NCBI GenBank assembly: GCA_018712135.1
Contig: DVHK01000109.1
Coordinates: 1 to 53,328, forward strand
Direction: 5' to 3'
Source: Candidatus Coproplasma avicola
Lineage (GTDB): Bacteria; Bacillota; Clostridia; Christensenellales; Borkfalkiaceae
DNA: 53,328 nucleotides
In this document: positions 831-20,586 of the stretch, one piece after another
Numbering within the stretch: the first letter of the stretch is position 1
How the letters are laid out: each line of letters begins with the position of its first letter
Translations under genes and position numbers: made by a program
The notes under the pieces: model-generated
Told to the model about the DNA's origin: nothing
The model's database searches: none
The model's input: only the letters and a program-made list of their open reading frames with translations

Positions 831-978
831 TCGCAACCCTTTAATTTGTGTTAATGATTATTTATGAACAATTATACTATATTTAAGAACAAAAAGTCTA
901 TTAATTTTTAATAAACTAATTTATAATAATTGTGTAACCGTGTGTAAAAGCACGTTAAAAATAAAGAGGTGGAAAACG

Positions 979-3770: not shown

Positions 3771-3771
3771 C

Positions 3772-5199
3772 ATGAAAAAACAGGCGTTCAATCCTTATCT
3801 TCCAGGCTGGGAATATATCCCCGACGGCGAACCGCATGTGTTCGGCGGCAGGGTATACGTATACGGCTCGCACGACAGGTTCAATGGCGGCGGTTTCTGC
3901 ATGAACGATTATGTAACCTGGTCTGCCCCCGTCGACGACCTCAGCGACTGGCGGTACGAGGGCGTCATATACAAAAAGACGGATGATCCTTCATATAATG
4001 GCAGGGGGAGCATGTACGCCCCCGACGTCTGCCTCGCGCCCGACGGCAGGTACTATTTGTACTACGCCTTCAACCCCGGCATTACGCGCAAAAGCTGGGC
4101 GATACGCTGCGCAGTTGCAGACAGTCCGGCGGGGCCGTTCAAATACCACGGCGAGGTGGATTTATATCCCTATTCAAAAGAATATCTGCCCTTTGACCCC
4201 GCAGTATATGTCGAGGACGGCAGGGTGTGGCTTTACTACGGCTCGGGCATGTTCTTTCCCGTGCTCGGCGTATCCAAAAGCAACGTAAAGGGCGGAGCGG
4301 TGGTCGAACTCGATCCCAAGGACATGCTTACGGTCATCAGCGGCCCCGTTCAGACCATGCCGGCGAACGGTCAATTGGGCGGGCACAGCTTTTTCGAGGC
4401 CTCGTCAATGCGCAAGATAGACGGCAGATACTACTTTGTCTATTCCTCCGCCATAGGGCATGAGTTGTGCTATGCAGTCGGCAATTTGCCCGCAGGCCCA
4501 TTCACATATGGCGGAACGCTCGTATCAAACGGCGACATAGGTCTGCGCGATGCGCACAACGGCCCCAAGACTGCCGCCAATTATACGGGCAATACCCACG
4601 GGGGAATGCTCTCCGTCGGCGGAAAGAATTATATATTTTACCACCGCCAGACCAACCGCAACTGTTTTTCGCGCCAGGGCTGTGCGGAGGAGGTATTTAT
4701 TCAGCCGAATGGCTCGATAAAGCAGGTTGAAATGACGAGCTGCGGCCTCAACGGCGGCCCGCTTGAAGGCAGGGGGGTGTACGAGGCGCGCATCGCCTGC
4801 AACCTCACTTCGCGCAAGGGCGGCAGGTTTCATTCCAAACCGCTCGGCAAGAACAGGGCGGGCTGTCACCCGTACTTCACGCAGAGCGGCGGCGACAGGA
4901 ACGGCAACGGCGACCAATATATTGCCAATTTCTGCAACGGCGCCATGGCGGGCTTTAAATATTTTGACATAAAGGGTCTTAAACGCATAGGCGTAACCGT
5001 CTGCGGCAAGGCGGAGGGGGTAATGCAGGTAAAGTGCGAACCCTTCGGCGCGACCGTGGCGGAGATAGAGATACACCCCTCCGCAGATGAAAGAACTTTT
5101 TACGGCGATTATAAGGGCGATGACGGCGTAAAGGCGCTGTACTTCACCTTTTTGGGCAAGGGCAAAATCAAAAAATTTATAAATATTGTTTTGGAGTGA
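3772..5199 (+). CDS. glycoside hydrolase family 43 protein (beta-xylosidase/alpha-arabinofuranosidase-like), apparently cytoplasmic
   Basis: NPYLPGWEYIPDGEPHVFGGRVYVYGSHD..., MYAPDV, FFEASSMRKIDGRYYFVYS; GAGGTGG SD before ATG 3772; no signal peptide. Confidence 0.9.
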   Translation: MKKQAFNPYLPGWEYIPDGEPHVFGGRVYVYGSHDRFNGGGFCMNDYVTWSAPVDDLSDWRYEGVIYKKTDDPSYNGRGSMYAPDVCLAPDGRYYLYYAFNPGITRKSWAIRCAVADSPAGPFKYHGEVDLYPYSKEYLPFDPAVYVEDGRVWLYYGSGMFFPVLGVSKSNVKGGAVVELDPKDMLTVISGPVQTMPANGQLGGHSFFEASSMRKIDGRYYFVYSSAIGHELCYAVGNLPAGPFTYGGTLVSNGDIGLRDAHNGPKTAANYTGNTHGGMLSVGGKNYIFYHRQTNRNCFSRQGCAEEVFIQPNGSIKQVEMTSCGLNGGPLEGRGVYEARIACNLTSRKGGRFHSKPLGKNRAGCHPYFTQSGGDRNGNGDQYIANFCNGAMAGFKYFDIKGLKRIGVTVCGKAEGVMQVKCEPFGATVAEIEIHPSADERTFYGDYKGDDGVKALYFTFLGKGKIKKFINIVLE

Positions 5200-5484: not shown

Positions 5485-6825
5485 ATGGTAGGACTTGACA
5501 TATACAAATTTCAGTTCATGATTGAACTGCTTATAGCCGAGGGACTGTTCGTGGTAAAATTGCGCAGGCGCAGATATTTCTGGGCGCGCCTTGTTGCAAG
5601 CCTGATTGTAATGTTTGCCGCGGTAGCGCTGTTTCCCCTGCGCTACAACGCTTTTTTCAGCTCGCTGATGTTCCTCACCTTTTTTGTTCTGTCAATCGCG
5701 GCGATAGGTTTTTGCTTTCACGATACGTTCTGGAACATTATCTTTTGCAGCCTCGCCGCATATACAGTTCAGCATATCGCCTATCTTCTGTATAACATCC
5801 TCGTCAATCTCATAACTGAAAATATAGGCAACAATATCTATTACGGAAATAGCGACGCGCCCATCGATGGCCCTACTATGGCAATATGCTGGATCATATA
5901 TTTCGCCTGCTACATAATGGTGTATGTCGAAACATATTTTCTGCTTACGGCAATGATACCCAAAAATCCCGATTTGCAGCTGGGCAAAAGCAGCCTGATA
6001 GTAGTCTGTCTGCTGGTCGTCGTCGCCGACATAGTATTCAACATGGTGACGGTCTACAACGCCGACGCCGATCAGACGTCGTTTTTCCTCGAACAGATTT
6101 ACAATCTCATCATATGTCTGCTCATATTGTGGATACAGTTTCAGAAACTGCGGCAGAAAGCCATCATGAGCGATTACGACGTCATACACAAGATACTCGA
6201 CCAGGAGAGGGAGCAGTTCAAGCACCTCAAAGAGAACATGAACTATATCAACGTAAAGTGCCACGATCTTAAACATCAGCTCCGCGCTGCCTACCGCGAC
6301 GAAACAGTCGACCTTGAAAAGCTCAAAAGAGCGGAGCAGGCGATAGCCATTTATCAGACGGTGGCGCGGACGGGCAATGAAACGCTTGATATAGTGCTGA
6401 CGGACAAACTGCTGTACTGCGGCAGGAACAACGTCACGATAACCTGCATAGCGGACGGAAAAAGTCTTTCGTTCATGAGCGAGGAAGATATATACAGTCT
6501 TTTCGGCAACGCGCTCGACAATGCGGTGCTGGCGGTCGAGCAGCTGCCCGAACCTTATCGTGAGGTCAAACTCACGGTAAAAAGTCTAGGCGACGTAGTC
6601 AGCGTGCGCGTAGAAAATAAATTTAAGGGCAAACTAAAATTCGAGGACGGTTTGCCCGTGACGACGAAGGGCGATAAGAAGTATCACGGCTACGGAATAA
6701 TGAGTATGCGAATGATAGCCGCCAAATACAACGGCAAGATAAACATAGACGTCAACGAAGATAACTTTGTACTCAACATAGTTTTTGTGGAGCCCGAAGA
6801 GAATAGCGATGGAGGCGATAAATGA
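5485..6825 (+). CDS. GHKL-domain sensor histidine kinase (AgrC-like, multi-TM N-terminus)
   Basis: N-terminal hydrophobic segments, then CHDLKHQLRAA..., FGNALDNAVLAVE, GYGIMSMRMIAAKYNG. Confidence 0.88.
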   Translation: MVGLDIYKFQFMIELLIAEGLFVVKLRRRRYFWARLVASLIVMFAAVALFPLRYNAFFSSLMFLTFFVLSIAAIGFCFHDTFWNIIFCSLAAYTVQHIAYLLYNILVNLITENIGNNIYYGNSDAPIDGPTMAICWIIYFACYIMVYVETYFLLTAMIPKNPDLQLGKSSLIVVCLLVVVADIVFNMVTVYNADADQTSFFLEQIYNLIICLLILWIQFQKLRQKAIMSDYDVIHKILDQEREQFKHLKENMNYINVKCHDLKHQLRAAYRDETVDLEKLKRAEQAIAIYQTVARTGNETLDIVLTDKLLYCGRNNVTITCIADGKSLSFMSEEDIYSLFGNALDNAVLAVEQLPEPYREVKLTVKSLGDVVSVRVENKFKGKLKFEDGLPVTTKGDKKYHGYGIMSMRMIAAKYNGKINIDVNEDNFVLNIVFVEPEENSDGGDK

Positions 6826-7520
6826 AGATAGCCATAGTCGAAGATACAAAAATACACGTAAAGCAGCTCGAAAGCCATCTTGACCGGTATCAGCAGGAAG
6901 AGGGTGAAACGTTTGAAGTATTCACTTTTTCTGACGGGTTAAAATTTCTTGACAGCATAAAACAGGGCTATGACATAATCTTCATGGATATCAACATGCC
7001 GTATATAGACGGAATGGAAACGGCGAAACGGCTGCGAGAAATAGACAGGTACGCGTGCCTGATATTTATAACCGAACTGTCGCAGTACGCGATAAGCGGG
7101 TACGAAGTGGCGGCGTTCGATTTTGTTGTCAAGCCCGTTTCATACGAGATGTTTCGTCCCAAGCTCGCCAAAGCCATAGCAGAAGTAAATAAAAATAACC
7201 TGGGGAAGCTTTGCATACGCAACAAAGACGTCATCCGCATGGTAAAGATACAGGATATCTATTACATTGAAACGGTGCAACACAAAATAATCTATCATCT
7301 GGCAAACGAGGATGTAGAGGTGTGGGATTCGCTTGACAAGGCGGAAAGCCGACTGCCGCCGGGCAGATTTGCGCGGTGCGGAACGAGTTATCTCGTCAAT
7401 CTCGCGCATGTGGTCATGGTAAAGGGCAACACGGTCACGCTTCCGAACACGACTTTGCCGATCAGCCGTTTAAAGAAGAAAGAATTCATCGACAGTCTGA
7501 TAAAATTCACGATGTTATAA
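6822..7520 (+). CDS. LytTR-family response regulator (AgrA-like)
   Basis: Receiver MKIAIVEDTKIH...IIFMDINMPYIDGMETA and C-terminal LytTR (DIYYIETVQHKIIYH...GRFARCGTSYLVNLAHV); ATGA overlap with kinase. Confidence 0.9.
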   Translation: MKIAIVEDTKIHVKQLESHLDRYQQEEGETFEVFTFSDGLKFLDSIKQGYDIIFMDINMPYIDGMETAKRLREIDRYACLIFITELSQYAISGYEVAAFDFVVKPVSYEMFRPKLAKAIAEVNKNNLGKLCIRNKDVIRMVKIQDIYYIETVQHKIIYHLANEDVEVWDSLDKAESRLPPGRFARCGTSYLVNLAHVVMVKGNTVTLPNTTLPISRLKKKEFIDSLIKFTML

Positions 7521-7558
7521 TAAAATAAGACCTCCCGAATCCGGGAGGCCTTATTTTA
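7521..7558 (+). terminator. Intrinsic terminator after two-component system
   Basis: TAAAATAAGaCCTCCCgaatccGGGAGGcCTTATTTTA. Confidence 0.85.
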
Positions 7559-7627
7559 TATAAAAAGTCAAAAAATGATAATTATGTTCCCGATTTGTAA
7601 TTTAAAATACATAATCTGTCATAATTA

Positions 7628-7655
7628 TTGAAACTTTTTATGAGTTTATTATAAT
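7628..7655 (+). promoter_or_regulatory. Probable promoter of the GH3/lipoprotein locus
   Basis: TTGAAA (7628-7633), 16-bp spacer, TATAAT (7650-7655). Confidence 0.5.
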
Positions 7656-7686: not shown

Positions 7687-10600
7687 ATGAACAAAAAAAA
7701 GAGAATAAGATACGCAGTCTTTATTTTTGTATGTTTTTTGGCGTTGATTTTCTTCATCGCCAATATTGTCGTTACGCAGGAGCAGTTTTTGTATAATACG
7801 GTCTGCTCCGTATTGGGCTGGCCGCGCAGGACGCTCGTCAGCGGCGATCCTTCGCAGTATCAGTACTACACTTCCGACTATTCTACAAAGGAAGAAACGC
7901 TCTCTGCGGCAAATGCTTTTAACGAAAAGATAGTCGAAGAGGGCATTGTCCTTTTGAAGAATGAAGATGCTTTGCCTATTCCTACGCCTGAAAGTGACCA
8001 AAGCGTCAGCCGCAAACCTAAATTAAGTGTTTTTGGACATAACAGCGTAAATCTCGTCTACGGAGGTTCGGGTTCGGCCGGCGGCGACGGCTCCGAGGGT
8101 GCGTCGACCATTTACGACAGCTTGCAGGCGGCGGGTTATGAGTATAACCCCGTTCTCAAATCCTTTTATGAAAGTTCTGCTGCGGGCGAGGTGAGAGATA
8201 CTCCTACAATGGGCGACAATACTCTCGCGGGCGTGAGAATAGGCGAGACGCCCATCGGTAACTATACCGATGCGGTTCGCCAAAGTTATTCCGAATACAG
8301 CGACGCTGCCGTCGTCGTCCTTTCACGCGTTGGAGGCGAGGGGTTCGACCTTCCCCGCACGATGAAAACATCGCTCACGGACAGCGGTGAAAAGGTGGAG
8401 GGGGCGCGCAGTGCCGAAGATCACTACTTGCAGCTTGACGAAAACGAAGTCAATATGCTGAGAGAGGTAATGGAGCATTTCGATAATATAATCATCGTCA
8501 TCAACAGCAGCCAGACGATAGAGCTGGGCTTTCTCGACGATCCTTCTCACTATCTTTACACCGATGGGAACTGGGCTACTTCCGATCAGGCGCAGAGGCA
8601 GATGGACAAAATCAAGGGTGCGCTCTGGATCGGTTCGCCCGGCAAATCGGGTATAAACGCCCTCGGCAGGGTCATGAACGGCTCGGTAAATCCTTCGGGG
8701 AAAACGGTTGATACTTATGCCCGCGATTTTACAAAGGATCCCACATATAACAATTTCGGCACAAACAACGTATTGCACGGCAACGAATACTACACCATAA
8801 ACAGTAAGGGCAACCCCATGGGCAGGGAGGAGTATCTCGTAGAATACGAAGAGGGCATATACGTCGGTTATCGTTACTACGAAACGCGCTATATAACCGA
8901 AGGTGAAAACGGCGACGCGTGGTATCAGGATAACGTCGTCTATCCCCTCGGCTATGGTCTTAGCTACACGACATTCGACTGGCAGCTCCTCAACAAAGAA
9001 GAACTCGAAAACATGGCCGTCACACCCGAAAGCACGTTTACCGTCAAGGTGCGCGTTACCAACACGGGCGACGTTGCTGGTAAAGATGTCGTTCAGGTAT
9101 ACGTCAATCCGCCCTACTACGACGGCGGAATAGAAAAATCCGAAGTCGTGCTCGTCGGCTTTGCCAAGACGCCTCTTTTGCCCGCGGCAAAGGATGCCAC
9201 GGCGGACAACCCCAACTGGTGCGACCTTGAAATCGAGGTAAAGGCGGAATATTTTGCCTCCTACGACTATAACGACGCCAACACAAACGAGCACACGGGT
9301 TACGAAATCGAGCACGGCGACTACGAACTTCGCGTAAGCCGTAATGCTCACGACGCTTTGGATGCCGCGGTTGTAAACGTTCCCGAGGATATCAAGATGA
9401 CCGAGGACGTAAAGACCGGTGCGACCGTGCAGAATCGTTTCGATGATGTCAGCGGCTACATCAAAAAATATATGTCGCGCACAGATTTCGACGGAACCTG
9501 GCCCCAGTCGCCCACCCAGGACGAGCGCATAGTCACGCAGGAATTTTTGGACTCTCTCACGTGGGACGGCAACGACGCGGGTGAAAAGTGGGAGGCGACG
9601 CAGATGCCCGAGGGCGGTACGGGTAAATCCGTTCAGCTCTATGAGCTCATAGGCAAGCCCTATAACGATCCTCTATGGGAAGACCTTCTCGATCAACTTT
9701 CCATAGAAACCATGGCCGAACTCATAGGCACAGGCAACTATCACAGCATGGCAATAGACGCCATAGGCAAACCCAAGACCATCGACTCCGATGGCCCCGT
9801 AGGTTTCACGCCTTTCATGGGCGACCCCAGTGTTTACGGTACATGCACATATGCCAGCGGCTGTTTGCTCGGTGCGACATACAATGTAGAACTCGCCAAA
9901 GAAATGGGCGAAATGATAGGCAACGAAGGCATAATAGGTAATGTTGCAGGCGACGGAACGCCGTACAGCGGCTGGTACGCCCCCGCCGTCAACATACACC
10001 GCAGCCCGTTCAGCGGCAGAAACTGGGAATATTATTCCGAAGACGGCTACCTTTCGGGCATAATGGCGGCAAACGTCATTCAGGGTGCGCAGAGCAAGGG
10101 CGTTTATACCTTCATAAAGCACTTTGCGCTCAACGACCAGGAAACCAACCGTAATGGCGTGCTCACCTGGGCAAATGAACAGTCGATGCGCGAACTTTAT
10201 TTCCGTCCCTTTGAAATAGCGGTAAAGGACGGCGGAACCCGCGCCGTAATGTCGTCGTTCAACCGTATAGGCACGGTGTGGACGGGCGGCAGCTACGAAC
10301 TTTTGACCGAGGTACTGCGCGATGAGTGGGGATTCGAGGGTATGGTCATAACCGACTATAACTATGCGACACCTTATATGGATCCCGACCAGATGATACG
10401 CGCGGGCGGCGACCTCAACCTCACGCAGAAGTGGTGGCCGGGCACCGAGAACACGCCCACACAGGTCACAAGTTTAAGGCAGGCAACAAAGAACATTCTC
10501 TACACGGTTGCAAACAGCAACGCCATGAACGGCTATGGTTATGGCGTCGTATATAAGTATCTTTTACCTTACTGGGTAATAGGGCTGATCGTCGCCGACT

Positions 10601-10773
10601 GCGTAATAGTCGCATTGCTCGGCATATGGGCGTTCTTCCTCATCCGCGGGTATCTCCGCCGCAAAAAGGCGAGGCTTGCGGGCGTTCAGGAGAGCGGCAT
10701 CGCAGACGACGCGTCAACCTTTACAATAAATAAAATTTCACAGGAGGATGATGAGCATGAAAAGAATGAGTAG
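7687..10773 (+). CDS. Membrane-anchored glycoside hydrolase family 3 protein with reversed (alpha/beta sandwich - FnIII-like - TIM barrel) domain order
   Basis: N-terminal TM (YAVFIFVCFLALIFFIANIVV); EEGIVLLKNEDALP..., YPLGYGLSYTTFDW...VTNTGDVAGKDVVQVYV, then TIM-barrel motifs FIKHFALNDQETNR and GMVITDYN; C-terminal TM YWVIGLIVADCVIVALLGIWAFFLIRGYLRRKK. Confidence 0.9.
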   Translation: MNKKKRIRYAVFIFVCFLALIFFIANIVVTQEQFLYNTVCSVLGWPRRTLVSGDPSQYQYYTSDYSTKEETLSAANAFNEKIVEEGIVLLKNEDALPIPTPESDQSVSRKPKLSVFGHNSVNLVYGGSGSAGGDGSEGASTIYDSLQAAGYEYNPVLKSFYESSAAGEVRDTPTMGDNTLAGVRIGETPIGNYTDAVRQSYSEYSDAAVVVLSRVGGEGFDLPRTMKTSLTDSGEKVEGARSAEDHYLQLDENEVNMLREVMEHFDNIIIVINSSQTIELGFLDDPSHYLYTDGNWATSDQAQRQMDKIKGALWIGSPGKSGINALGRVMNGSVNPSGKTVDTYARDFTKDPTYNNFGTNNVLHGNEYYTINSKGNPMGREEYLVEYEEGIYVGYRYYETRYITEGENGDAWYQDNVVYPLGYGLSYTTFDWQLLNKEELENMAVTPESTFTVKVRVTNTGDVAGKDVVQVYVNPPYYDGGIEKSEVVLVGFAKTPLLPAAKDATADNPNWCDLEIEVKAEYFASYDYNDANTNEHTGYEIEHGDYELRVSRNAHDALDAAVVNVPEDIKMTEDVKTGATVQNRFDDVSGYIKKYMSRTDFDGTWPQSPTQDERIVTQEFLDSLTWDGNDAGEKWEATQMPEGGTGKSVQLYELIGKPYNDPLWEDLLDQLSIETMAELIGTGNYHSMAIDAIGKPKTIDSDGPVGFTPFMGDPSVYGTCTYASGCLLGATYNVELAKEMGEMIGNEGIIGNVAGDGTPYSGWYAPAVNIHRSPFSGRNWEYYSEDGYLSGIMAANVIQGAQSKGVYTFIKHFALNDQETNRNGVLTWANEQSMRELYFRPFEIAVKDGGTRAVMSSFNRIGTVWTGGSYELLTEVLRDEWGFEGMVITDYNYATPYMDPDQMIRAGGDLNLTQKWWPGTENTPTQVTSLRQATKNILYTVANSNAMNGYGYGVVYKYLLPYWVIGLIVADCVIVALLGIWAFFLIRGYLRRKKARLAGVQESGIADDASTFTINKISQEDDEHEKNE

Positions 10774-11758
10774 GCTTTTGTCAGTTCTGCTCGGCGCGGT
10801 GTTGGTCGCCGGCACAATATTAATTGCCGGCTGTCAGACCGAAGGCGGCGGAACGACAGAGCCTGAAAGGGAAGTCTGCCTCGTCGAAGTCGAAGGCGGT
10901 AGCGGTGGCGGGTATTATTACAAAGATACCAACTGCACAGTGGTCGCCGACGAGGTCGAAGGCAAGCAGTTTATGAAGTGGGTTTCGGGCAACAGGGAAC
11001 TTTCCGACAGCTCTACCTACGTATTCACCGTAACCGAGGATATCTCCCTTGAAGCGGTGTTTGCCGATGATGTTGATGTCAAAGACCTTTGCGACATAAA
11101 CGTAAAATTCGGCACGGGTTCGGGTAGATATTTTGCCGGCACCGAGCGCGAGCTTAAAGTTTCCGAAGAGTATTCCGCGCTCACTTTCGCAGGCTGGGAG
11201 GCAACCTATAAAGACGACAACGGACAGGACGTGACCGAGGTTATCTCCACGCAGAACCCCTATACTCTCACAGTTGAAAGGGATATGGATATAAAGGCGT
11301 GCTTTGAATCGGCTACGCTTGCGACGCCCGACAATTCCGAAGGGCAACATTTCAGAATAGCTGCAAACGGCGCATATGAATTTGACCGCGAAAAGAATGC
11401 CGATGGCAGCAGAAAAACCGTGTTTGTCCTCGGAGTGGCATATCTGCAATACCGCATGTACGACTCCGCCGACCCCGAAGCGCAGCCCATAGCAGTATTT
11501 AAAATCGTGCCGATAGCTAACCCCGCGACAGACGGAGCAAAGGCATACCTTGAAAATTCCGAAGGGCAAAGACAGGATCTCAAAGGTCCCCTCGGCGACC
11601 TCTATCACGACGAGGACGCGGGCAAGGCGCAGATACGCATTCTCCTCGGAATTGAAACGGGCAAAACTTACTACTTCGACGTCCAGGCTATCGCGGTAGA
11701 AGATTCACCCTTCGTAAGCAGCGAAATCTCCGTAAGGGGACCCGGTTGCACGTTCTGA
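10757..11758 (+). CDS. Lipoprotein with divergent InlB-B-type repeats plus an unrecognised C-terminal module
   Basis: Lipobox LIAGC; VEVEGGSGGGYYYKDTNCTVVADEVEGKQFMKWVSG...; AGGAGG SD; C-terminal segment ends SSEISVRGPGCTF. Confidence 0.8.
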   Translation: MKRMSRLLSVLLGAVLVAGTILIAGCQTEGGGTTEPEREVCLVEVEGGSGGGYYYKDTNCTVVADEVEGKQFMKWVSGNRELSDSSTYVFTVTEDISLEAVFADDVDVKDLCDINVKFGTGSGRYFAGTERELKVSEEYSALTFAGWEATYKDDNGQDVTEVISTQNPYTLTVERDMDIKACFESATLATPDNSEGQHFRIAANGAYEFDREKNADGSRKTVFVLGVAYLQYRMYDSADPEAQPIAVFKIVPIANPATDGAKAYLENSEGQRQDLKGPLGDLYHDEDAGKAQIRILLGIETGKTYYFDVQAIAVEDSPFVSSEISVRGPGCTF

Positions 11759-11778
11759 TAACGGAATAGGAGGAAAAT

Positions 11779-14700
11779 ATGAAACGTAAATCATTGTTAA
11801 TACCCCTGTTCGTCGTTGCGCTGGCGATAGCGCTGTGCATATCGGCGCTGACCGGTTGCATCGGAAGCGGCAGCGGAAACGACGATAAAGAACAGACATA
11901 TACCGTAACCGTCACGGGCGGTACAGGCGGCGGCGAATACGAGGAAGGCGAAGAATGCACCGTAACCGCCGAACTCGGTGAATACGAAACGTTCGTCCGC
12001 TGGGAAAATGCCGACGGTGAGGAGGTCTCCACCCAAAACCCCTACACGTTTGAAGTGGAGGGTGATGTCACCCTCGTCGCGGTTACAAATACGCAACAGG
12101 TCACCGTTACGGTTGATGGCGGCGTAATAAGCGGCACCGAGCTCTACCAGACTTCGGTAGACATCGGTTCGACGGTCAGCGTAACCGCGCCCGACGACAA
12201 GTCGGCGCCCTTCCTGTACTGGCAGATAGACGGTGTAAAACAGTCGGAAGAAAATCCCTACTCGTTTGTCGCCGAAAAGGATACACGCATCTCTGCGGTG
12301 GTCGATGTCGTCTGCCTTATCAAGGTAGATGGCGGCACCATTTCGGGCGGTGAAACGAGCCATATCTTCAAATCGGGCGAACAGTGCACCATAACTGCTG
12401 ACGCGGCTCCTGAAAATCAGTCGTTCGTCTATTGGTACATTCTCGACGAAAATGGTGAAGAGGTTATAATCTCCCGCGAGGCGAGCTACACCTTTAACGT
12501 GGCCGAATCCGAAAAGTACTACGCAAAATACAGCAAAGTCTACACCGTCACCGTCGAAGGCGGCTATATCCGGACCGAGAGCGGAAATGTTACCGAGCTG
12601 AACGTGATGGAGGGAGGTTCCTGCACGGTCAACCTCGATTACGAACTCATACCCGAAAATAAGGGCTTTGTCCGCTGGGATCTCGGCAACGGCGTAACTT
12701 CCGAGCAGATGACGTATGCCATAACGGACATAAACGAAGATTATACGGTAAAAGCCGTATACGGCGATCTCATAAGGTTTGCCGCACCCGAAATGGACGC
12801 AAACCAGATGTTCCGCTACAAGAACGATTACAGACCTCTCGAATTTGACAGAGGCACGTCTACCGTTTTTGTTCCAAATGTAACAGGCGTAATGTTCTAT
12901 ATATACACGAGCGCGTGGGCTGATACCGATGATTATGTCGGCAGATTCATGCTCGTAGGCGATACTTCAGGTTATAAGCTGACCACGACAGACGGTCAGA
13001 CTCTTCTGGAACTTGAAGGCGCTGCGGGCAACCTCTGGCTCGAAACCAAAAACGACTACACCAAGGATGATTTATTTGAAGCATTCGCAACGGTATTGGG
13101 CGAAGAATACAGCTCAACAACGCCTTACTTCCTCGCCGCGCAGACTCTCGGCGTCGAAGGTTCGGTCTATGCATCTAGCGAAATTTCTGTAATCGGGCCC
13201 ATGGTGTTTGTCGAAGAAAGCATCCCTTCGCACACCATAACCATTTCCGGCGGCACCATTACAGGCACGCAGCTTACATCTGTAACCGCATACAAGGGAC
13301 AGACGATAAGCGTAACATCTTCTGCCGAAAGCTTCAAATTCTGGCTTGTAAACGGCGAAGAGGAAGTCGCTCAGGCGACCTATGAATTTACGGTTGAAGG
13401 CGATACCGAACTTATCGCCGTATTCGACGAAGTTTACGACATAAGCGTCGTCGGCGGCACGTTCGAGGACGGCGAAACTCAAGTAAAGGCGGTTGCCGGT
13501 CAGCAATACACCATTTACGCCGACGAAGCTCCCCAAAACCAGGAGTTTGTATATTGGTATATCCTCGGTGCAGACAATGAGGAAATAATCGTTTCCGACA
13601 ACTATGAATATACCTTCACCGCCATGGGCGAACAGACATACTACGCCAAGTTTAAGAATACTTATCTTCTTACTGTAAACGGCGGGTATGTCGAAGGACT
13701 GAGCGGCGACGACGGCGTATACACCGTTATCGAGGGCGAAAGCTACACTGTGGTTGCGAACATTCCAGAGGGCAAGGGTCTTGTCGAATGGAAGATAGGT
13801 GACGAAAGCGTTTCGCAAGACGTAAAATACGTCATTCCCGCAATTTCGGGTAATGTAACCATAGAAGCCGTATACGATGACCTCGTATATCTGTTTGAAG
13901 TTCCCGAAATGGATCAGAACCAGATGTTCGATCTCGAAAAGGACAGCTATTCAACTATCATTCTCGACAGAATGAAGATAGACGGCGATTCAACCAATGT
14001 TGATCCCGAAAACAGAAAGACTGCCTTTGTCGAAAATGTCGACCATATAACTTACTATATCTACACTTACGGCTACGCAGATAAAAACGACTATGTGGGC
14101 AGGTTTATCCTCACCCGTCAGCTCAACAACGACGGAAAATACAGTTACTACCTTGCAACCGTCGAAGGCGTGCGCCTTCTCGACTTAAAGGGCAATGCGG
14201 GCGACCTGTACCTCGACCAGTACAGCCGCGAAAGGCTGTTCGCCGATGTGTTCTCAAAGGTGGTTGAAGGTTACAGTCCCACGACCCCTTATTACCTTGC
14301 GGCGCAGGTCTGCGGAAGGACGGGCAGCATATACGCTCCCAGCGAAATTTCCGTAATCGGCCCCCGCGCGTTCATGGCACAGGATGTCCCCGCTTACACC
14401 GTCAGCGTTGAAGGCGGCGTAATAACCGGCACCGAACTGACCACGGCGACGATATATGAGGGTCAGACAATAAGCGTAACGGCAACTTCCCCCGACTTCA
14501 AGTACTGGAACATAAACAATACCGACAAGTCGGTAGATAAAACGACGGAATATGTGGTAACGGCAAACACGACGTTTGTCGTCGGCAAGGACGAAACCTT
14601 TACCGTCAGCGTTGAAGGCGGCACGCTTCAAGGCGGAGGCACCCAGGCGCAGATATCTTCGGGCGAAGAGTGCACCATAGTCGCCGAGGAACAGAGCGGC

Positions 14701-15516
14701 AATAAAGTATTCTTCGGTTGGTACGTCATGAACGGGGAAGACAAGGTTCTCGTCTCCTCTGATGCGGAATACACCTTCTGGGTATTCTCGTCGCAGACCT
14801 ACATCGCCGAATATGTCAACACCCACACCGTCACCATAATATACGGCGGCGAGCTCTACGAGCAAAAGACCTATCTCGAAGGTGAAACTGTCACGGTCAC
14901 CCTCGACCTTTCAAAGATTCCCGAGGGCATGGGCTTCACGGGTTGGAGAATAGGCGATGAAGTCGTCACTACCGGGCTTACGTATGAGTTCGTAATCCAG
15001 GGCGACACCACCATAAAGGCGGAATTTGCCGAACAGGTGCACGAATTTGCTACACCCGATATGGATAAAAACCAGATGTTCAGATACAGCGGCGATTACA
15101 ATCCTCTCGAATTCGACAGAGAGCAGAGCGGCGGTACAGCATTTGTTGAGCATGTCGACCACATAAAGTTCTATATCTACACCTCGCCCGATGCGGACAA
15201 GGGAGATTACATTGCAACTTTCATTCTCGACGCAAAAGGTCAGGCGGGTAGCGATCCCCGTTATGTATACAGGCTGGCGACAAATGAAGGGGAAACTCTC
15301 CTCGCACTCGAAGGTATACCCGGAAATCTCTGGCTTCAAACGAGGGACGGTTACAACAAGGATAAGCTGTTCGAAATGTTTGCAAAAGTAATAGGCGAAA
15401 ATTACAGCGCCGATCAGGAATATTACCTCGCGGCGCAGGCGTGCGGAGCGGCAGGCAGCATTTATGCTCCCAGCGAAATTTCCGTAATCGGTCCCGCACC
15501 GTTCAAACAGAATTAA
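11779..15516 (+). CDS. Large lipoprotein with multiple InlB-B-type repeats and three copies of the EISVIGP module
   Basis: Lipobox ALTGC; repeated VTVEGG/GGTISG...FVYWYILDENGEE units; three copies of NQMFRY...YIYTS...AAQ..G..GS.YA.SEISVIGP. Confidence 0.85.
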   Translation: MKRKSLLIPLFVVALAIALCISALTGCIGSGSGNDDKEQTYTVTVTGGTGGGEYEEGEECTVTAELGEYETFVRWENADGEEVSTQNPYTFEVEGDVTLVAVTNTQQVTVTVDGGVISGTELYQTSVDIGSTVSVTAPDDKSAPFLYWQIDGVKQSEENPYSFVAEKDTRISAVVDVVCLIKVDGGTISGGETSHIFKSGEQCTITADAAPENQSFVYWYILDENGEEVIISREASYTFNVAESEKYYAKYSKVYTVTVEGGYIRTESGNVTELNVMEGGSCTVNLDYELIPENKGFVRWDLGNGVTSEQMTYAITDINEDYTVKAVYGDLIRFAAPEMDANQMFRYKNDYRPLEFDRGTSTVFVPNVTGVMFYIYTSAWADTDDYVGRFMLVGDTSGYKLTTTDGQTLLELEGAAGNLWLETKNDYTKDDLFEAFATVLGEEYSSTTPYFLAAQTLGVEGSVYASSEISVIGPMVFVEESIPSHTITISGGTITGTQLTSVTAYKGQTISVTSSAESFKFWLVNGEEEVAQATYEFTVEGDTELIAVFDEVYDISVVGGTFEDGETQVKAVAGQQYTIYADEAPQNQEFVYWYILGADNEEIIVSDNYEYTFTAMGEQTYYAKFKNTYLLTVNGGYVEGLSGDDGVYTVIEGESYTVVANIPEGKGLVEWKIGDESVSQDVKYVIPAISGNVTIEAVYDDLVYLFEVPEMDQNQMFDLEKDSYSTIILDRMKIDGDSTNVDPENRKTAFVENVDHITYYIYTYGYADKNDYVGRFILTRQLNNDGKYSYYLATVEGVRLLDLKGNAGDLYLDQYSRERLFADVFSKVVEGYSPTTPYYLAAQVCGRTGSIYAPSEISVIGPRAFMAQDVPAYTVSVEGGVITGTELTTATIYEGQTISVTATSPDFKYWNINNTDKSVDKTTEYVVTANTTFVVGKDETFTVSVEGGTLQGGGTQAQISSGEECTIVAEEQSGNKVFFGWYVMNGEDKVLVSSDAEYTFWVFSSQTYIAEYVNTHTVTIIYGGELYEQKTYLEGETVTVTLDLSKIPEGMGFTGWRIGDEVVTTGLTYEFVIQGDTTIKAEFAEQVHEFATPDMDKNQMFRYSGDYNPLEFDREQSGGTAFVEHVDHIKFYIYTSPDADKGDYIATFILDAKGQAGSDPRYVYRLATNEGETLLALEGIPGNLWLQTRDGYNKDKLFEMFAKVIGENYSADQEYYLAAQACGAAGSIYAPSEISVIGPAPFKQN
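12103..15513 (+). repeat. Three tandem composite protein-coding repeats (~1.1 kb period)
   Basis: Composites ~12103-13206, ~13237-14371, ~14401-15513 each consist of InlB-B-like units followed by an EISVIGP module. Confidence 0.75.
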
Positions 15517-15529
15517 GGAGGATATTTTG

Positions 15530-18500
15530 ATGAAGAGCGGTATTAAAAAATCAATGCTGCGCGCCGTCGCAATTCCCGTTGCGGCAATCCTCGGATTGGG
15601 CTTTAACGCCCAATTCGTGGGCGCCGTGGGCAGCGGAATAGCCAATGCGGCGACGGGCGAAGAATATTATTACTACGACACTCAGTACGAAAGTGCAGAG
15701 CAGGTCAGGGAAGCCGCAACGCAGCTCAACCGAAAGATGGCTTCCGAGGGCATGGTTCTTCTCAAAAACGAGGATTACCTCCCCATGAAACCCAGGCAGG
15801 AGGGCGGCAAAATAAATGTAAGTATCTTCGGCAAAAGCTCGGCAGATATCGCCTACTTCGGCTTCGGTTCAAGCGACAGTATGGCGATAGGCGGCGACTG
15901 GACGCGCGAAACAAAGCCCTTCTACCAGGCTTTCGACGGCACCGTGTTCAACGTCAATCCCACGCTCAAAGCCTTTTATGAGGACGACAACGCATCGGGC
16001 AAAGGGCGCCTCAACGGCGACTTCCACGGTTCGCTCGATGCCTACCGCGCGGGGCTTTCCACGGGCGAAACTCCCCAGTCTATGTACACCGACGATGTAA
16101 AAAGCAGTTATGCGCAGTATAACGATGCGGCTATTGTCATGCTGACCAGGGTGCGCGGCGAAGGCAACGACCTGCCCAAAACCAGTCTTAAAAGCTGGGG
16201 CGGCGAAAAGCTCGACAGCGCCCGCAGCGGCGACGACCACTACCTGCAACTCGACGCGTACGAAGTCGAACTGTTGCAGGAAGTAATGAAGAATTTCAAC
16301 AACATAGTTCTTCTCATAAACGCGTCGGGCCCCATGGAGGTAGGTTTCCTCAACGACCCCACGCACTACCTGTATACCGATAACAACTTCACAAGCAACG
16401 TCGAGGACGCCGAAGAGCAGATGGGCAAGATAAAAGCTGCGATCTCCGTCGGCTTCCCCGGAACTGACGGCTGCTTTGAAATTCCCCGTCTGCTCACGGG
16501 CGAAGTTACCCCCTCGGGTCACCTCGCCGATACGTGGGTGTACGACATGACCAAGGACCCCACTTATCAGAATCAGGGTTATAACGGCGCCGCAGACGGC
16601 AACACCTATGGCGCGCCCTACGTCCACTACGACGAGGATATATACCTCGGCTACCGCTATTACGAAACGCGCTATGTAGAAGAGGGCGAAACCCTTGCCG
16701 ACGGCGAGGAGTGGTACCAAGGTCAGGTGCAGTATCCCTTCGGCTACGGCCTTTCATATACCGACTTCGATTGGGAGCTCGTATCATCCGAAAATTCGGG
16801 AGAGGGAGCCGAGCTCGATAAGTTCGGCACCATAACAACAAAGGTTAAGGTGACTAATACGGGCGCGTACTCCGGCAAAGAAGTCGTTCAGCTCTATTAC
16901 AGCGCCCCTTATTACGAGGGCGGAATATCCAAGTCGCACGTCGTTCTGGGCGGCTTTGCCAAAACAAAGCTGCTTGAACCGGGTGAATCGGACACGGTAG
17001 AAATCAAACTCAACGTCTCCGACATGTATTCGTACGATTGGAGCGATGCAAACCTCAACGATTTCAAGGGTTACGAGCTTGAACAGGGCGAATACAAAAT
17101 TGTCGTCGCCTCCGATGCCCACGAAGCGGCACAGCGCGCGGCTAATCCCGACAACGAGTTCACCAAGGTTTACAACATAACCAAAGGCTTCACTTACGAA
17201 AACGACACTACTACGGGCGCACCCGTAAGCAACCTCTTCGATGATGTAAGCGGCACGCGTAAGGTCAACGACCCCGAAACTTTTACAGGCGTGCGCGTGT
17301 ATATGTCGAGGGACGACTTTGAGGGAACTTTCCCCACGCCCGCATCCGAAAAGAAGAGCGGCAAACTTCAACAGCCGTGGACTTACACCATATCCGAAGA
17401 ATTCGACAGTCAGAACCCTTGGTATTCGGAAGAAATGCCCACTCAGGCTGAAACTCCGGGAACGGCAGAAACAAACAAAATCAAACTTTGGCATCTGCGC
17501 GGCAGGGACTACGACGACCCCCTGTGGGATGCTTTCCTCGATCAGCTCACGGTATCTGAGCTCGTCACCCAGATAGAAAACGGCTTCTTCGGCACCCGTC
17601 CCATCGCATCGGTAGACAAACCCTCTACCTATGACGACGACGGCCCCCTCGGCAAGCGCCACTGCCCCGACGTTCAGTGGGTAGACAACACCACAACGGC
17701 ACAGACGTTCAACACCGACCTCGCTTATGCGCAGGGCGTGATGATGGGCGAAGCCGCCCTCTGGGGTATGAACCATGCCGATGGCTCCAACATGATGGCT
17801 CCTCCTGCGGGCATTTATGGTGCAAAGCCTGAGGGCAGGGGCGGCACTTACGGACTTGGTCTCAACACTCACCGTTCACCCTTCGGCGGCAGAAACTTCG
17901 AGTATTTCTCGGAAGACGGCTTCCTCGGCGGCAAAATGGGCGCAAATGTTGCAAAGGGTTCGCTGTCAAAGGGCTGCTATCAGATTTCCAAACACATCTT
18001 CTTGAACGATCAGGAGACCGAGCGCGGCACCTTGCAGACATGGGCGAGCGAACAGGCTATCCGCGAAATTTACGGCAAGCCCTTTGAAATCGCCATAAAG
18101 GAAGGCGGGCTCAACGCCCTTATGGCGGGCGTAAACAGCGTAGGCAACGTGCCTTGTTCGCAGAACTGGGCGCTTCTCACCGGACTCGTGCGCAACGAAT
18201 GGGGTTTCCGCGGATTTGTCATAACCGACCTCACGCGCTTCCCCGTCGACATGTGCATACGCGCCGGCTGTAACACAATGATGGTGCACAACCAGCTCAA
18301 CACCCCTGCGACCGACCCCGAGCATTTAACTGCCACGCAGCTCACCGCCATACGCGAATCGGCTAAGAGCGTGTTCTACACGGTAGCCAACACCAACGGC
18401 GTGCAGGGTTACGGCGGCGCGCCTCTCGATGCAATAGAGTACGGCGGCGCTAATACGATCTATGCGGTAGAGGGAGTGTCTAATGACCTCTCTGCCAACA

Positions 18501-19756
18501 CCGCGCAGAATGCACTCACGGGCGACACCGATCTCGTTTACTCCGTAGCCGAAGGATCTTCTCTCCCCGAGGGCATGACGCTCACTAAGGACGGCGTTCT
18601 TACAGGCGCTCCCGCGGAGGCAGGCGACTACACCATAACGCTCAGCGCCGATGAAAAGCTCGGTGAAGATTCGCAAATCGCATATCCTTACAAGGCGGCT
18701 ACAAAGCAGTTTAACCTCAAAGTTTATGCCAAGGACGAAATTCCCGACACGATTATCTTCGAGGACGACTACTTGCCCACTATACCCGTCGGGTTTGAAT
18801 ATTCGCAGAGCATAAGCAGTGCGGTCGTATTCGACGAAGAGGGCAAACTTACCACCGATGTCGAATACGCGCTTACGTCAGACAGCGCTCTTCCCCGCGG
18901 ACTTAAACTTGAAAACGGTTATATCTCAGGCATTTGTACGGCGCCCGAAGGTAAATATTTCTTCACTGTCCGCGCCTCTGCCGAGGGCAGAACGTCCGTC
19001 GAACTTGACTTCATAGTGCGCGTTAAGGAATATAAAATAGACTATCCTGCACAGCAGCTCCAAGACCTTCACGTCGGTCAGTCGGCTTACTTCTCGGTTG
19101 CAGGTGCAACCAATGCCGACGGGCTCGAAATCGAATACGCCCTCAAAGACGGTTCGTCCCTCCCCGAAGGTCTCACGATCAGTCGCTTCGGCGTAATTTC
19201 GGGCACACCTGAAAGGGCATACACTTCGCATAAGTTTACTGTTGTGGCAAGGGCAAATCTCGCCGCGCCCGCAGAAACAACTTACGAAATCAATGTTCTC
19301 GGTCTTGAAATCGCAGACGTAACTTATGAAAACGTCCTCATCGGCAAAGCTTATTCGTTTGCGCTCAACGCCGCTCCCAACGATGGCGGTACGGCAGAAA
19401 ACGTCACTTACTCCTTGAAGGAGGGAAGTTCGCTACCTGCAGGTTTCTATATGTCGAGTGATGGCATAATCCGCGGCGTCGGCACGGAAATCGGCGACCA
19501 GTCCTTCACCGTTGTAGTCGAAGCCGAAGGCTACGTTCCTGTTGAAACTACCGTAACCATCAACCTCTACGGCATATTCGAGGATGAGCCCACGAGCGAT
19601 GTCGACGGTACTCCCATGGATGAACCTCCCGAAGAGTATCATGGCGGCGTAAGCGGTTGCCAGGGCTCTGTGACAGGAATAACCATGATAGGCGGTCTTG
19701 TTGTCCTCGCGGCGGTCATCGCAGGAGCAAAGATCATAAATTCAAAACGCAAATAA
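15530..19756 (+). CDS. Surface-anchored GH3 family protein with reversed domain order, putative Ig-like (He_PIG-type) repeats and C-terminal TM anchor
   Basis: Signal peptide-like N-terminus; EGMVLLKNEDYLPM..., YPFGYGLSYTDFDW, SKHIFLNDQETERG, GFVITDL; four SSLPEGLTIS-type units; tail GITMIGGLVVLAAVIAGAKIINSKRK. Confidence 0.88.
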   Translation: MKSGIKKSMLRAVAIPVAAILGLGFNAQFVGAVGSGIANAATGEEYYYYDTQYESAEQVREAATQLNRKMASEGMVLLKNEDYLPMKPRQEGGKINVSIFGKSSADIAYFGFGSSDSMAIGGDWTRETKPFYQAFDGTVFNVNPTLKAFYEDDNASGKGRLNGDFHGSLDAYRAGLSTGETPQSMYTDDVKSSYAQYNDAAIVMLTRVRGEGNDLPKTSLKSWGGEKLDSARSGDDHYLQLDAYEVELLQEVMKNFNNIVLLINASGPMEVGFLNDPTHYLYTDNNFTSNVEDAEEQMGKIKAAISVGFPGTDGCFEIPRLLTGEVTPSGHLADTWVYDMTKDPTYQNQGYNGAADGNTYGAPYVHYDEDIYLGYRYYETRYVEEGETLADGEEWYQGQVQYPFGYGLSYTDFDWELVSSENSGEGAELDKFGTITTKVKVTNTGAYSGKEVVQLYYSAPYYEGGISKSHVVLGGFAKTKLLEPGESDTVEIKLNVSDMYSYDWSDANLNDFKGYELEQGEYKIVVASDAHEAAQRAANPDNEFTKVYNITKGFTYENDTTTGAPVSNLFDDVSGTRKVNDPETFTGVRVYMSRDDFEGTFPTPASEKKSGKLQQPWTYTISEEFDSQNPWYSEEMPTQAETPGTAETNKIKLWHLRGRDYDDPLWDAFLDQLTVSELVTQIENGFFGTRPIASVDKPSTYDDDGPLGKRHCPDVQWVDNTTTAQTFNTDLAYAQGVMMGEAALWGMNHADGSNMMAPPAGIYGAKPEGRGGTYGLGLNTHRSPFGGRNFEYFSEDGFLGGKMGANVAKGSLSKGCYQISKHIFLNDQETERGTLQTWASEQAIREIYGKPFEIAIKEGGLNALMAGVNSVGNVPCSQNWALLTGLVRNEWGFRGFVITDLTRFPVDMCIRAGCNTMMVHNQLNTPATDPEHLTATQLTAIRESAKSVFYTVANTNGVQGYGGAPLDAIEYGGANTIYAVEGVSNDLSANTAQNALTGDTDLVYSVAEGSSLPEGMTLTKDGVLTGAPAEAGDYTITLSADEKLGEDSQIAYPYKAATKQFNLKVYAKDEIPDTIIFEDDYLPTIPVGFEYSQSISSAVVFDEEGKLTTDVEYALTSDSALPRGLKLENGYISGICTAPEGKYFFTVRASAEGRTSVELDFIVRVKEYKIDYPAQQLQDLHVGQSAYFSVAGATNADGLEIEYALKDGSSLPEGLTISRFGVISGTPERAYTSHKFTVVARANLAAPAETTYEINVLGLEIADVTYENVLIGKAYSFALNAAPNDGGTAENVTYSLKEGSSLPAGFYMSSDGIIRGVGTEIGDQSFTVVVEAEGYVPVETTVTINLYGIFEDEPTSDVDGTPMDEPPEEYHGGVSGCQGSVTGITMIGGLVVLAAVIAGAKIINSKRK

Positions 19757-19782
19757 TTTTTTAAAAGGAGATTTGTATTTAT

Positions 19783-20487
19783 ATGAAAAAGATAATTGCA
19801 GGAGTTATAATGTCGGCAGTCGCGCTGACGATGGGTGCGCTCGTAGGATGCAGCAGTACCCCTTCGGAGGAAGTTCCCGACGATCCCGCCGGCACTAAAA
19901 CGGCGGTGTTTGAAGCCGAAGGGTGCGACCTCTCCGAATACAGCGGTCACGGTTGGTCCAACAATGCAACGGGTTGTCAGACCATTCAGGGTCAGAACAC
20001 TCAAAAAATCAGGGAAAATCAAAGCGTGCTCAACTCAATAAGCAACGGGTATTTCGTCGGCTTCTTCGGCGTTGAAAACACCGCCCTTACCTTCGACTTT
20101 ACCTCGGCAGAGGCGGTGGAGGAGGCTACTTTGGTTCTTCGTCTGGCGTCAGAATGGGGCACTATGACCGTCGATGATTCTATAATGCAAATAGAGGTAA
20201 ACGGCGAAATAATCGAGTACAATCCTTTTACCGTAACAGGCAAAAAGATCGACAGCGCCGCCACCGTCGAATACGGCGTTCCCTTTGCTGATTTCACCAT
20301 CTCCACAAAAATCAGCCTTAAAAAGGGCGACAACACCATAAGGCTCATCGGTCAGGGCGCGCCTTTCGGTGATATGGAATCGATGGACATTGGACCCGGC
20401 GTCGACTGCATCAAAATCAAGTCTATGACTGATGTGACCTGGGAATCCCTTTGGGAAGATAACCAGCTCAACGTAAAGGAAAATTAA
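19783..20487 (+). CDS. Lipoprotein with carbohydrate-binding-module-like (CBM6/35-type jelly roll) domain
   Basis: Lipobox LVGC; FEAEGCDLSEYSG...NGYFVGFFGVENTALTFDFTS...LVLRLAS...ISLKKGDNTIRLIG pattern. Confidence 0.65.
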   Translation: MKKIIAGVIMSAVALTMGALVGCSSTPSEEVPDDPAGTKTAVFEAEGCDLSEYSGHGWSNNATGCQTIQGQNTQKIRENQSVLNSISNGYFVGFFGVENTALTFDFTSAEAVEEATLVLRLASEWGTMTVDDSIMQIEVNGEIIEYNPFTVTGKKIDSAATVEYGVPFADFTISTKISLKKGDNTIRLIGQGAPFGDMESMDIGPGVDCIKIKSMTDVTWESLWEDNQLNVKEN

Positions 20488-20552: not shown

Positions 20553-20586
20553 AAAAAAGGGGCGGTCGTGCGACCGTCCCTTTTTG
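20553..20586 (+). terminator. Intrinsic terminator ending the GH3/lipoprotein locus
   Basis: AAAAAGGGGCGGTCG-tg-CGACCGTCCCTTTTT. Confidence 0.85.

What the first reader, a model, noticed from the sequence alone, without database searches (positions are those of the whole stretch)
7687..20487. Five-gene surface glycan locus: two permuted, membrane-anchored GH3s, two module-sharing InlB-repeat lipoproteins and a CBM-like lipoprotein
Seen: five co-directional genes with overlaps or gaps of about 30 nt or less, own promoter-like sequence (7628-7655) and terminator (20553-20586). Every product carries a membrane anchor: TM at both ends, lipobox, lipobox, signal plus C-terminal TM, lipobox. There are no transport or sortase genes. 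Established: GH3 enzymes are exo-glycosidases, InlB B-repeats are common in surface proteins, and CBM6/35-like domains bind sugars. Inference: a cell-surface glycan capture and trimming apparatus, functionally a Gram-positive counterpart to binding-protein/enzyme surface complexes. This is my leading candidate for an undescribed system.
Basis: partly seen in the sequence, partly recalled or inferred. Interest (0 to 1): 0.75.

Follow-up and report, generated by a model that had tools for sequence, protein, structure and literature searches.

The report
Two-component-controlled paired-GH3 surface glycan cassette
The five genes are one copy of a gene cassette found in many gut Firmicutes, in which two different reversed-order sugar-cutting enzymes and a sugar-binding lipoprotein sit together on the outer face of the cell membrane, apparently switched on by the sensor-regulator pair next door; parts were noticed before, the conserved pair as a unit was not found described.

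Summary
Observation confirmed: five tightly packed + strand genes (7687-20487) encode two domain-permuted GH3 enzymes (A, D), two InlB-repeat lipoproteins (B, C) and a lipoprotein (E) predicted to have a CBM35 fold.

(1) The unit is larger: the GHKL kinase and LytTR regulator just upstream (5485-7520) belong to it. (2) The conserved core is smaller: one long GH3, one short GH3 and E; the InlB lipoproteins vary. (3) It is not isolated: the same genome has five more such loci, and related cassettes occur across Clostridia and Bacilli.

The GH3s form two fully supported clades. Every short GH3 with enough flanking DNA has a long partner nearby (65/65; 16 others truncated). Catalytic Asp is conserved in 153/153, acid/base Glu in 144/153. 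LytTR copy number tracks permuted GH3s (164 regulators in 33 species with them, 9 in 48 without). 9-12-9 bp direct repeats are enriched upstream.

Most likely function: regulated exo-trimming of beta-linked glycans at the membrane, probably for nutrition. Rival: remodelling of the cell's own surface glycan.

Prior art: permuted GH3s (GlyA1); LytTR next to membrane-anchored GH3 in Butyrivibrio (2010). Novelty: new variant of a known kind.

The parts
5485..6825 (+). GHKL sensor histidine kinase (446 aa, about 5 hydrophobic segments)
   Evidence: PF14501 E 6e-21; homologues sit beside related cassettes in relatives
6822..7520 (+). LytTR response regulator (232 aa)
   Evidence: PF04397 E 3e-18 and PF00072; five of the genome's six LytTR hits are listed and lie beside permuted-GH3 loci, the sixth fits L009
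7525..7554 (+). intrinsic terminator closing the kinase/regulator operon
   Evidence: fold -17.2 kcal/mol, z -4.74
7593..7622 (+). candidate LytTR site: ATTTGTAAT - 12 bp - ATCTGTCAT (7/9 match, period 21), ending 5 bp before the -35
   Evidence: printed positions there are one base low; architecture matches known LytTR sites, 9-bp repeats 12 bp apart, 4-11 bp upstream of the -35 in S. mutans (PMC6193735). Weak on its own, supported by the ensemble enrichment
7628..7655 (+). sigma-70-like promoter TTGAAA-16-TATAAT
   Evidence: consensus match only
7687..10773 (+). A: GH3-S, permuted GH3 with hydrophobic segments at both ends
10748..11758 (+). B: lipoprotein, InlB repeats plus one EISVIGP module (11318-11755)
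11779..15516 (+). C: lipoprotein, three tandem units of InlB repeats plus EISVIGP module (modules 12778-13212, 13894-14376, 15046-15507)
   Evidence: module model pLDDT 90, no PDB match at E <= 0.001
15527..19756 (+). D: GH3-L, permuted GH3 with four He_PIG Ig-like stretches and a C-terminal TM
19783..20487 (+). E: lipoprotein with a predicted CBM35-type beta-sandwich; member of the conserved E family
20554..20585 (+). intrinsic terminator
   Evidence: fold -23.1 kcal/mol, z -4.95
3682..5199 (+). GH43, close to TerARA arabinofuranosidase/xylosidase; possibly functionally linked
   Evidence: PDB 9no3 E 3e-112; GH43s 47% identical to it lie next to the cassettes of L056 and L081

Best explanation
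The locus is one copy of a conserved surface glycan-trimming cassette. A GHKL/LytTR two-component system senses an unknown cue and its regulator activates the five-gene operon through a 9-12-9 bp direct repeat next to the -35. The products stay at the outer face of the membrane: E and the InlB/EISVIGP lipoproteins B and C hold a glycan near the membrane, and the two permuted GH3s, GH3-L (D) and GH3-S (A), remove beta-linked sugars from its non-reducing ends, probably one after the other or as a pair with different linkage preference. Released sugars are taken up by transporters encoded elsewhere, making this most likely a scavenging system for plant or other beta-glycans. Shown here by sequence: gene set, permutation, catalytic residues, pairing of GH3-L and GH3-S, linkage to E and to LytTR, repeat enrichment. 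Predicted: the CBM35 fold of E. Inferred: binding of the repeats by the regulator, glycan binding by B, C and E, physical complex, substrate, nutritional purpose.
For: Two GH3 clades with support 1.0 (72 long, 81 short), normally one of each per locus; 65 of 81 short GH3s have a long partner within 9 kb and all 16 misses are truncated by contig ends; GH3-L and GH3-S distances correlate, Mantel r 0.73 vs permutation maximum 0.20, part of which is shared species history. E within 9 kb of GH3-S in 71/81 loci; in the genus E occurs in 23 of 81 genomes, all with permuted GH3 (Fisher 1e-12), and 44/56 strong E hits are within 3.5 kb on the same strand. Fusions of GH3 with InlB repeats and of GH3 with E in L049, L059, L065, L068, L074. 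Nucleophile Asp 153/153, acid/base Glu 144/153. LytTR count tracks permuted GH3 (P 7e-14). Period-21 repeats upstream of 14/81 cassettes vs 0.9, sd 1.0 in shuffles. Characterised permuted GH3s are beta-glucosidases: GlyA1 with beta-xylosidase activity too, BrGH3A with laminaribiose preference. Carbohydrate neighbours: xylose isomerase-like gene, FGGY kinase and GH43 in the window, two GH16 lipoproteins in a C122 paralogue.
Against: No transporter in the locus, unlike gpPULs. One paralogue sits beside an MBOAT acyltransferase in 9 of 18 MBOAT-bearing genomes of the genus, and some Bacilli-type versions sit beside UDP-galactopyranose mutase, GT2 and a GtrA-like protein, which points to self-made glycans. 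The pentose genes upstream of the window's cassette are not seen beside its closest relatives. Substrate, sensing and physical contact are untested.
Confidence: 0.58

Rival explanations
1. The cassette remodels the bacterium's own surface polysaccharide: the GH3 pair trims an envelope or exopolysaccharide at the membrane, the lipoproteins hold it, and the AgrC-like kinase/LytTR pair ties this to population or envelope state.
For: MBOAT gene within 10 kb, same strand, in 9/18 MBOAT-bearing genomes of the genus; MBOAT-SGNH pairs acylate envelope polymers (PMC12148441). GLF, with GT2 and a GtrA-like protein in most, next to the cassette in six Acholeplasmataceae-, Haloplasmataceae-, Izemoplasmatales- or Bacillota-labelled MAGs; GLF is single-copy in five of these six genomes. 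No transporter; GHKL kinases of the AgrC type often sense peptides (established knowledge, not tested).
Against: These neighbours belong to particular paralogues or lineages, not to the window's locus, which has pentose genes and GH43 upstream. GH16 enzymes accompany another paralogue. Absence of the cassette from most species of the genus (E in 23/81) fits a diet-linked function at least as well. The SGNH assignment of the MBOAT partner proteins rests on motifs seen by eye; Pfam finds only LRR_5 and Flg_new.
Confidence: 0.27
2. The enzymes and lipoproteins serve mainly as the sensing front end: they release or present a sugar that the membrane kinase reads, so the cassette is a glycan sensor more than a feeding machine.
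For: Very tight LytTR linkage, membrane-tethered exo-enzymes, kinase with about five hydrophobic segments and no recognised extracellular sensor domain.
Against: Direct repeats lie upstream of the enzyme operon itself, so the enzymes look like the regulated output; catalytic residues are nearly always kept in both GH3s.
Confidence: 0.1
3. An ordinary cluster of unrelated surface genes without joint function.
For: InlB repeats and GH3s are common; the order of genes varies among loci.
Against: Conserved pairing, fusions, co-occurrence and shared regulation.
Confidence: 0.02

Closest known systems
Permuted GH3 subfamily: GlyA1 (PDB 5K6L), Paenibacillus barengoltzii beta-glucosidase, BrGH3A
   Same: Same order of domains (alpha/beta sandwich, Fn3-like, TIM barrel), same catalytic layout; largely Firmicutes and gut-linked (PMC5104943, PMC11233000; PDB hits include a collinear match over 83-891)
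   Different: Those were described as single enzymes; BrGH3A lacks a signal peptide. Here two membrane-anchored clades occur as a regular pair with a CBM35-fold lipoprotein and a two-component system
LytTR regulators beside secreted GH3s with a C-terminal membrane helix, Butyrivibrio proteoclasticus B316 PUL7, 21 and 33 (PMC2914790)
   Same: LytTR regulator close to a secreted GH3 with a C-terminal TM, in three loci of one genome; very probably the same kind of locus
   Different: One sentence in a genome paper; in the passages read, no GH3-L/GH3-S pairing, E lipoprotein, permutation or binding-site repeat is mentioned. I did not inspect the B316 genome or the supplement
Gram-positive polysaccharide utilisation loci (gpPULs, PMC5320581)
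   Same: Glycoside hydrolases with a local regulator; one listed gpPUL (Ros-7) has a LytTR regulator
   Different: gpPULs by definition include a carbohydrate transport system; none is present here
SusCD-type PULs of Bacteroidetes
   Same: Surface lipoproteins plus glycosidases under a local sensor, several copies per genome (functional analogy only)
   Different: No SusC/SusD homologue, no outer membrane, no transporter

Membership tests
GH3, permuted (GlyA1-like) subfamily | GH3_C, then Fn3-like, then GH3_N in one chain | tested here: met
   A and D by Pfam coordinates
GH3, permuted (GlyA1-like) subfamily | catalytic Asp in the barrel and acid/base Glu in the sandwich domain | tested here: met
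   Asp 153/153, Glu 144/153 in the family; window A and D not among the exceptions
GH3, permuted (GlyA1-like) subfamily | exo-beta-glycosidase activity | not testable with these tools
   needs assay
gpPUL (Sheridan 2016 definition) | at least one polysaccharide-degrading enzyme | tested here: inconclusive
   GH3s are exo-acting; GH43 nearby
gpPUL (Sheridan 2016 definition) | carbohydrate transport system in the locus | tested here: not met
   none among the ORFs between 940 and 20487; the first flanking membrane gene is a MATE on the opposite strand; none among the 25 commonest families of operon neighbours
gpPUL (Sheridan 2016 definition) | transcriptional regulator in the locus | tested here: met
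   LytTR regulator and GHKL kinase, 5485-7520
CBM35 superfamily (protein E) | CBM35-type beta-sandwich fold | tested here: met
   model pLDDT 87, best PDB matches CBM35 modules, TM normalised to target about 0.7, E about 1e-5 to 1e-6
CBM35 superfamily (protein E) | sequence profile above threshold | tested here: not met
   only PF14683 below cut-off; no NCBIfam hit
CBM35 superfamily (protein E) | carbohydrate binding | not testable with these tools
   needs binding assay
LytTR-regulated operon | 9-bp direct repeats about 12 bp apart just upstream of the -35 | tested here: met
   family-wide enrichment of period 21; in the window 7/9 match, 5 bp from the -35; individual site weak
LytTR-regulated operon | regulator binds and activates the promoter | not testable with these tools
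   needs EMSA or reporter
SusCD-type PUL | SusC TonB-dependent transporter and SusD lipoprotein | tested here: not met
   no such gene among the cassette and flanking ORFs scanned

The most novel reading that the evidence does not exclude
GH3-L, GH3-S and the E lipoprotein form an obligate membrane complex, a previously unrecognised type of surface glycan machine in Firmicutes with its own dedicated LytTR two-component system, part of whose paralogues have been turned to remodelling acetylated or galactofuranose-containing surface glycans of the producer itself.
Probability: 0.25. Interest if true: 0.72.

Novelty: new variant of a known kind. Interest (0 to 1): 0.52.

Why it matters
Many gut Firmicutes are known only as MAGs and their surface glycan handling is poorly understood. 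A recognisable cassette that pairs two different permuted GH3s with a CBM35-fold lipoprotein and its own two-component system gives these genomes an annotatable, testable unit, explains why LytTR regulators multiply in some species of one genus and are nearly absent in others, and turns a one-sentence remark of 2010 into a defined system. The MBOAT and UDP-galactopyranose mutase neighbours raise a sharp question (food or self-glycan?) that can be answered in a cultivable carrier such as Blautia schinkii.

Tried and rejected
'Undescribed five-gene system' rejected: the conserved core is GH3-L, GH3-S and E plus the two-component system, and pieces are published. gpPUL membership rejected: no transporter. 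Inactive-partner (pseudoenzyme) idea rejected in general: acid/base Glu is lost in only 9 of 153. Period-30 repeat peak upstream of cassettes dismissed as mostly a tandem array in L099. EISVIGP module as Fn3: the PDB matches lean towards Fn3 proteins but none is significant, left open. E was not found in 146 other genomes drawn from the class, so the cassette is patchy rather than universal. Plasmid carriage: only one distant tblastn hit, Niallia, 34%. Position-level LytTR proximity (39/63 within 6 kb) is a lower bound because the GH3 lists were cut at about ten per genome. Paper searches on LytTR with GH3 gave no description of the pair; the library holds only open-licence papers.
Full report
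CHECK OF THE OBSERVATION. The five ORFs are present exactly as described: A 7687-10773, B 10748-11758, C 11779-15516, D 15527-19756, E 19783-20487, all on the + strand, with one 26-nt overlap and gaps of 10 to 26 nt. Pfam places the GH3 C-terminal domain before the N-terminal domain in both A and D, with an Fn3-like domain between. B and C carry divergent InlB repeats, D also four He_PIG Ig-like stretches, and E only a sub-threshold CBM-like hit. Both ends are marked by good intrinsic terminators: 7525-7554, which closes the upstream pair, and 20554-20585. A promoter-like site lies at 7628-7655, though such matches are only slightly more frequent than in shuffled sequence.

Immediately upstream are a GHKL histidine kinase (5485-6825) and a LytTR response regulator (6822-7520), and before them a xylose isomerase-like gene, an FGGY sugar kinase and a GH43. 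The GH43 is close to TerARA, an arabinofuranosidase/xylosidase (PDB 9no3, E 3e-112), and GH43s 47% identical to it lie next to the cassette in two distant lineages (L056, L081).

PARALOGUES IN THE SAME GENOME. The window is contig 25 of a 1.49-Mb draft genome. Five other places carry permuted GH3s with kinase/LytTR pairs: two on C122, and one each on C58, C26 and C90. One C122 locus contains two GH16 lipoproteins. PF04397 finds six LytTR regulators in the genome. The five that the output lists lie beside permuted GH3s. The sixth was cut from the list, but the regulator next to the GH16/GH3 locus (L009) fits it. A named genome, Candidatus Coproplasma avistercoris (L040, G266), shows LytTR positions identical to those of G032, a genome of the window's genus, so the organism is a relative of Ca. 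Coproplasma (Clostridia).

CONSERVATION BEYOND THE GENUS. A scan of 84,980 species genomes with the short-GH3 alignment found 530 relatives; the best 80 were fetched with flanks. Their neighbourhoods show one recurring set: LytTR regulator and GHKL kinase, an InlB lipoprotein of about 650 aa in many, a long permuted GH3 usually with a C-terminal TM, a short permuted GH3 usually with hydrophobic segments at both ends, and an E-type lipoprotein. It occurs in MAGs labelled Clostridia, Lachnospiraceae, Oscillospiraceae, Erysipelotrichaceae, Acholeplasmataceae and Izemoplasmatales, and in Blautia schinkii DSM 10518. In five loci the lipoprotein parts are fused to the GH3s (L049, L059, L065, L068, L074).

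THE GH3 PAIR. A tree of 153 permuted GH3s splits into a long clade (72 sequences, median 1320 aa; window D) and a short clade (81, median 1005 aa; window A), support 1.0. Of 81 short-clade genes 65 have a long-clade partner within 9 kb; all 16 without one lie on truncated flanks. The two distance matrices correlate with r 0.73 against a permutation maximum of 0.20, although shared species history contributes. Nucleophile Asp is invariant in 153, and the acid/base Glu is kept in 144. Both proteins of the window are therefore expected to be active exo-glycosidases.

THE E PROTEIN AND THE EISVIGP MODULE. E-type proteins share 24 to 40% identity with the window's. The AlphaFold model (pLDDT 87, pTM 0.82) matches CBM35 modules best. 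In the genus, E occurs in 23 of 81 genomes, all among the 33 with permuted GH3 (Fisher P 1e-12), and 44 of 56 strong E hits lie within 3.5 kb of a permuted GH3 on the same strand. E was found in none of 146 other genomes drawn from the class, so the cassette is patchy. The EISVIGP module of B and C (30 copies aligned) is confidently predicted (pLDDT 90) but matches no PDB entry at E <= 0.001; among the loci fetched it is largely restricted to the close relatives.

REGULATION. LytTR copy number follows the permuted GH3s: 164 in 33 genomes with them, 9 in 48 without (Mann-Whitney P 7e-14). Upstream of 81 cassettes, direct repeats of period 21 are strongly enriched (14 regions vs 0.9, sd 1.0 in shuffles; 17 vs 2.4 at lower stringency), with period 20 next. 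This is the published architecture of LytTR sites: 9-bp repeats mostly 12 bp apart, a few bp upstream of the -35 (PMC6193735). In the window the best repeat of this kind is ATTTGTAAT at 7593-7601 and ATCTGTCAT at 7614-7622, 5 bp before the -35. Alone it would be weak.

FUNCTION. Characterised permuted GH3s are beta-glucosidases: GlyA1, also active on xylosides, and BrGH3A, which prefers laminaribiose. With GH43, pentose genes and GH16 lipoproteins in the vicinity of some copies, exo-trimming of plant or other beta-glycans at the membrane is the best-supported reading, with uptake by transporters elsewhere. The strongest counter-evidence: in 9 of 18 MBOAT-bearing genomes of the genus the MBOAT gene lies within 10 kb of a cassette on the same strand (chance estimate 3e-7 under a rough model), and in six Bacilli-type loci UDP-galactopyranose mutase, usually with GT2 and a GtrA-like protein, is adjacent. 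Such neighbours make or decorate the cell's own envelope glycans (PMC12148441, for MBOAT-SGNH pairs; established knowledge for the mutase). Hence the rival at 0.27.

RELATION TO WHAT IS KNOWN. Permuted GH3s are a known subfamily (PMC5104943, PMC11233000). Kelly et al. 2010 noted for Butyrivibrio proteoclasticus that each of three LytTR regulators is close to a secreted GH3 with a C-terminal TM helix (PMC2914790). gpPULs require a transporter (PMC5320581), which this locus lacks. I found no description of the GH3-L/GH3-S pair, the E lipoprotein or the dedicated repeats, but the paper library covers open-licence papers only. I therefore call it a new variant of a known kind.

LIMITS. The E, InlB and kinase profiles were trained on the same loci in which they were counted, so rates within that set are descriptive; the genus-wide searches with alignments A1 and A2 and with Pfam families are the independent test. 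Contig truncations and the ten-per-genome limit on GH3 hits make the linkage counts lower bounds. Chance models for linkage are rough and assume genes placed at random.

Noticed in passing
G000:C122 (L010:1-4878) and L081, L083, L100, L104: An MBOAT acyltransferase with LRR_5-containing proteins that carry SGNH-like motifs by eye clusters with one paralogue of the cassette; within 10 kb on the same strand in 9 of 18 MBOAT-bearing genomes of the genus.
   Followed up: partly
L045:730-4073, L050:6595-9881, L052:739-4025, L056, L075, L106: UDP-galactopyranose mutase, usually with a GT2 and a GtrA-like protein, lies next to the cassette in six Bacilli-type MAGs; GLF is single-copy in nearly all 18 genomes tested.
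   Followed up: partly
L009:9616-12970 (G000:C122): Two GH16 lipoproteins, one with long C-terminal repeats, take the place of the E-type lipoprotein in a paralogous permuted-GH3/LytTR locus of the same genome.
   Followed up: no
L010:10550-10999, L013:7863-8303, L032:6060-6506: A small membrane protein of about 146-149 aa with three or four hydrophobic segments sits next to the permuted GH3 in several loci; the copies look alike in layout but hardly match by profile.
   Followed up: no
window 11779-15516: Protein C is a tandem triplication of a unit of InlB repeats plus one EISVIGP module; the module is a confidently predicted fold (pLDDT 90) without a significant PDB match.
   Followed up: yes
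G000 genus, 81 genomes: LytTR regulators range from 0 to 11 per genome in one genus and track the permuted GH3s; genomes without permuted GH3s have almost none.
   Followed up: yes
GH3 proteins in L011, L066, L067, L090, L095, L103, L106, L113, L114: Nine long-partner GH3s lack the acid/base Glu in the alignment while keeping the nucleophile, and may be inactive or mechanistically changed partners.
   Followed up: no
window 940-5199: Xylose isomerase-like protein, FGGY sugar kinase and a TerARA-like GH43 precede the two-component genes; not seen beside the closest relatives of the cassette.
   Followed up: partly
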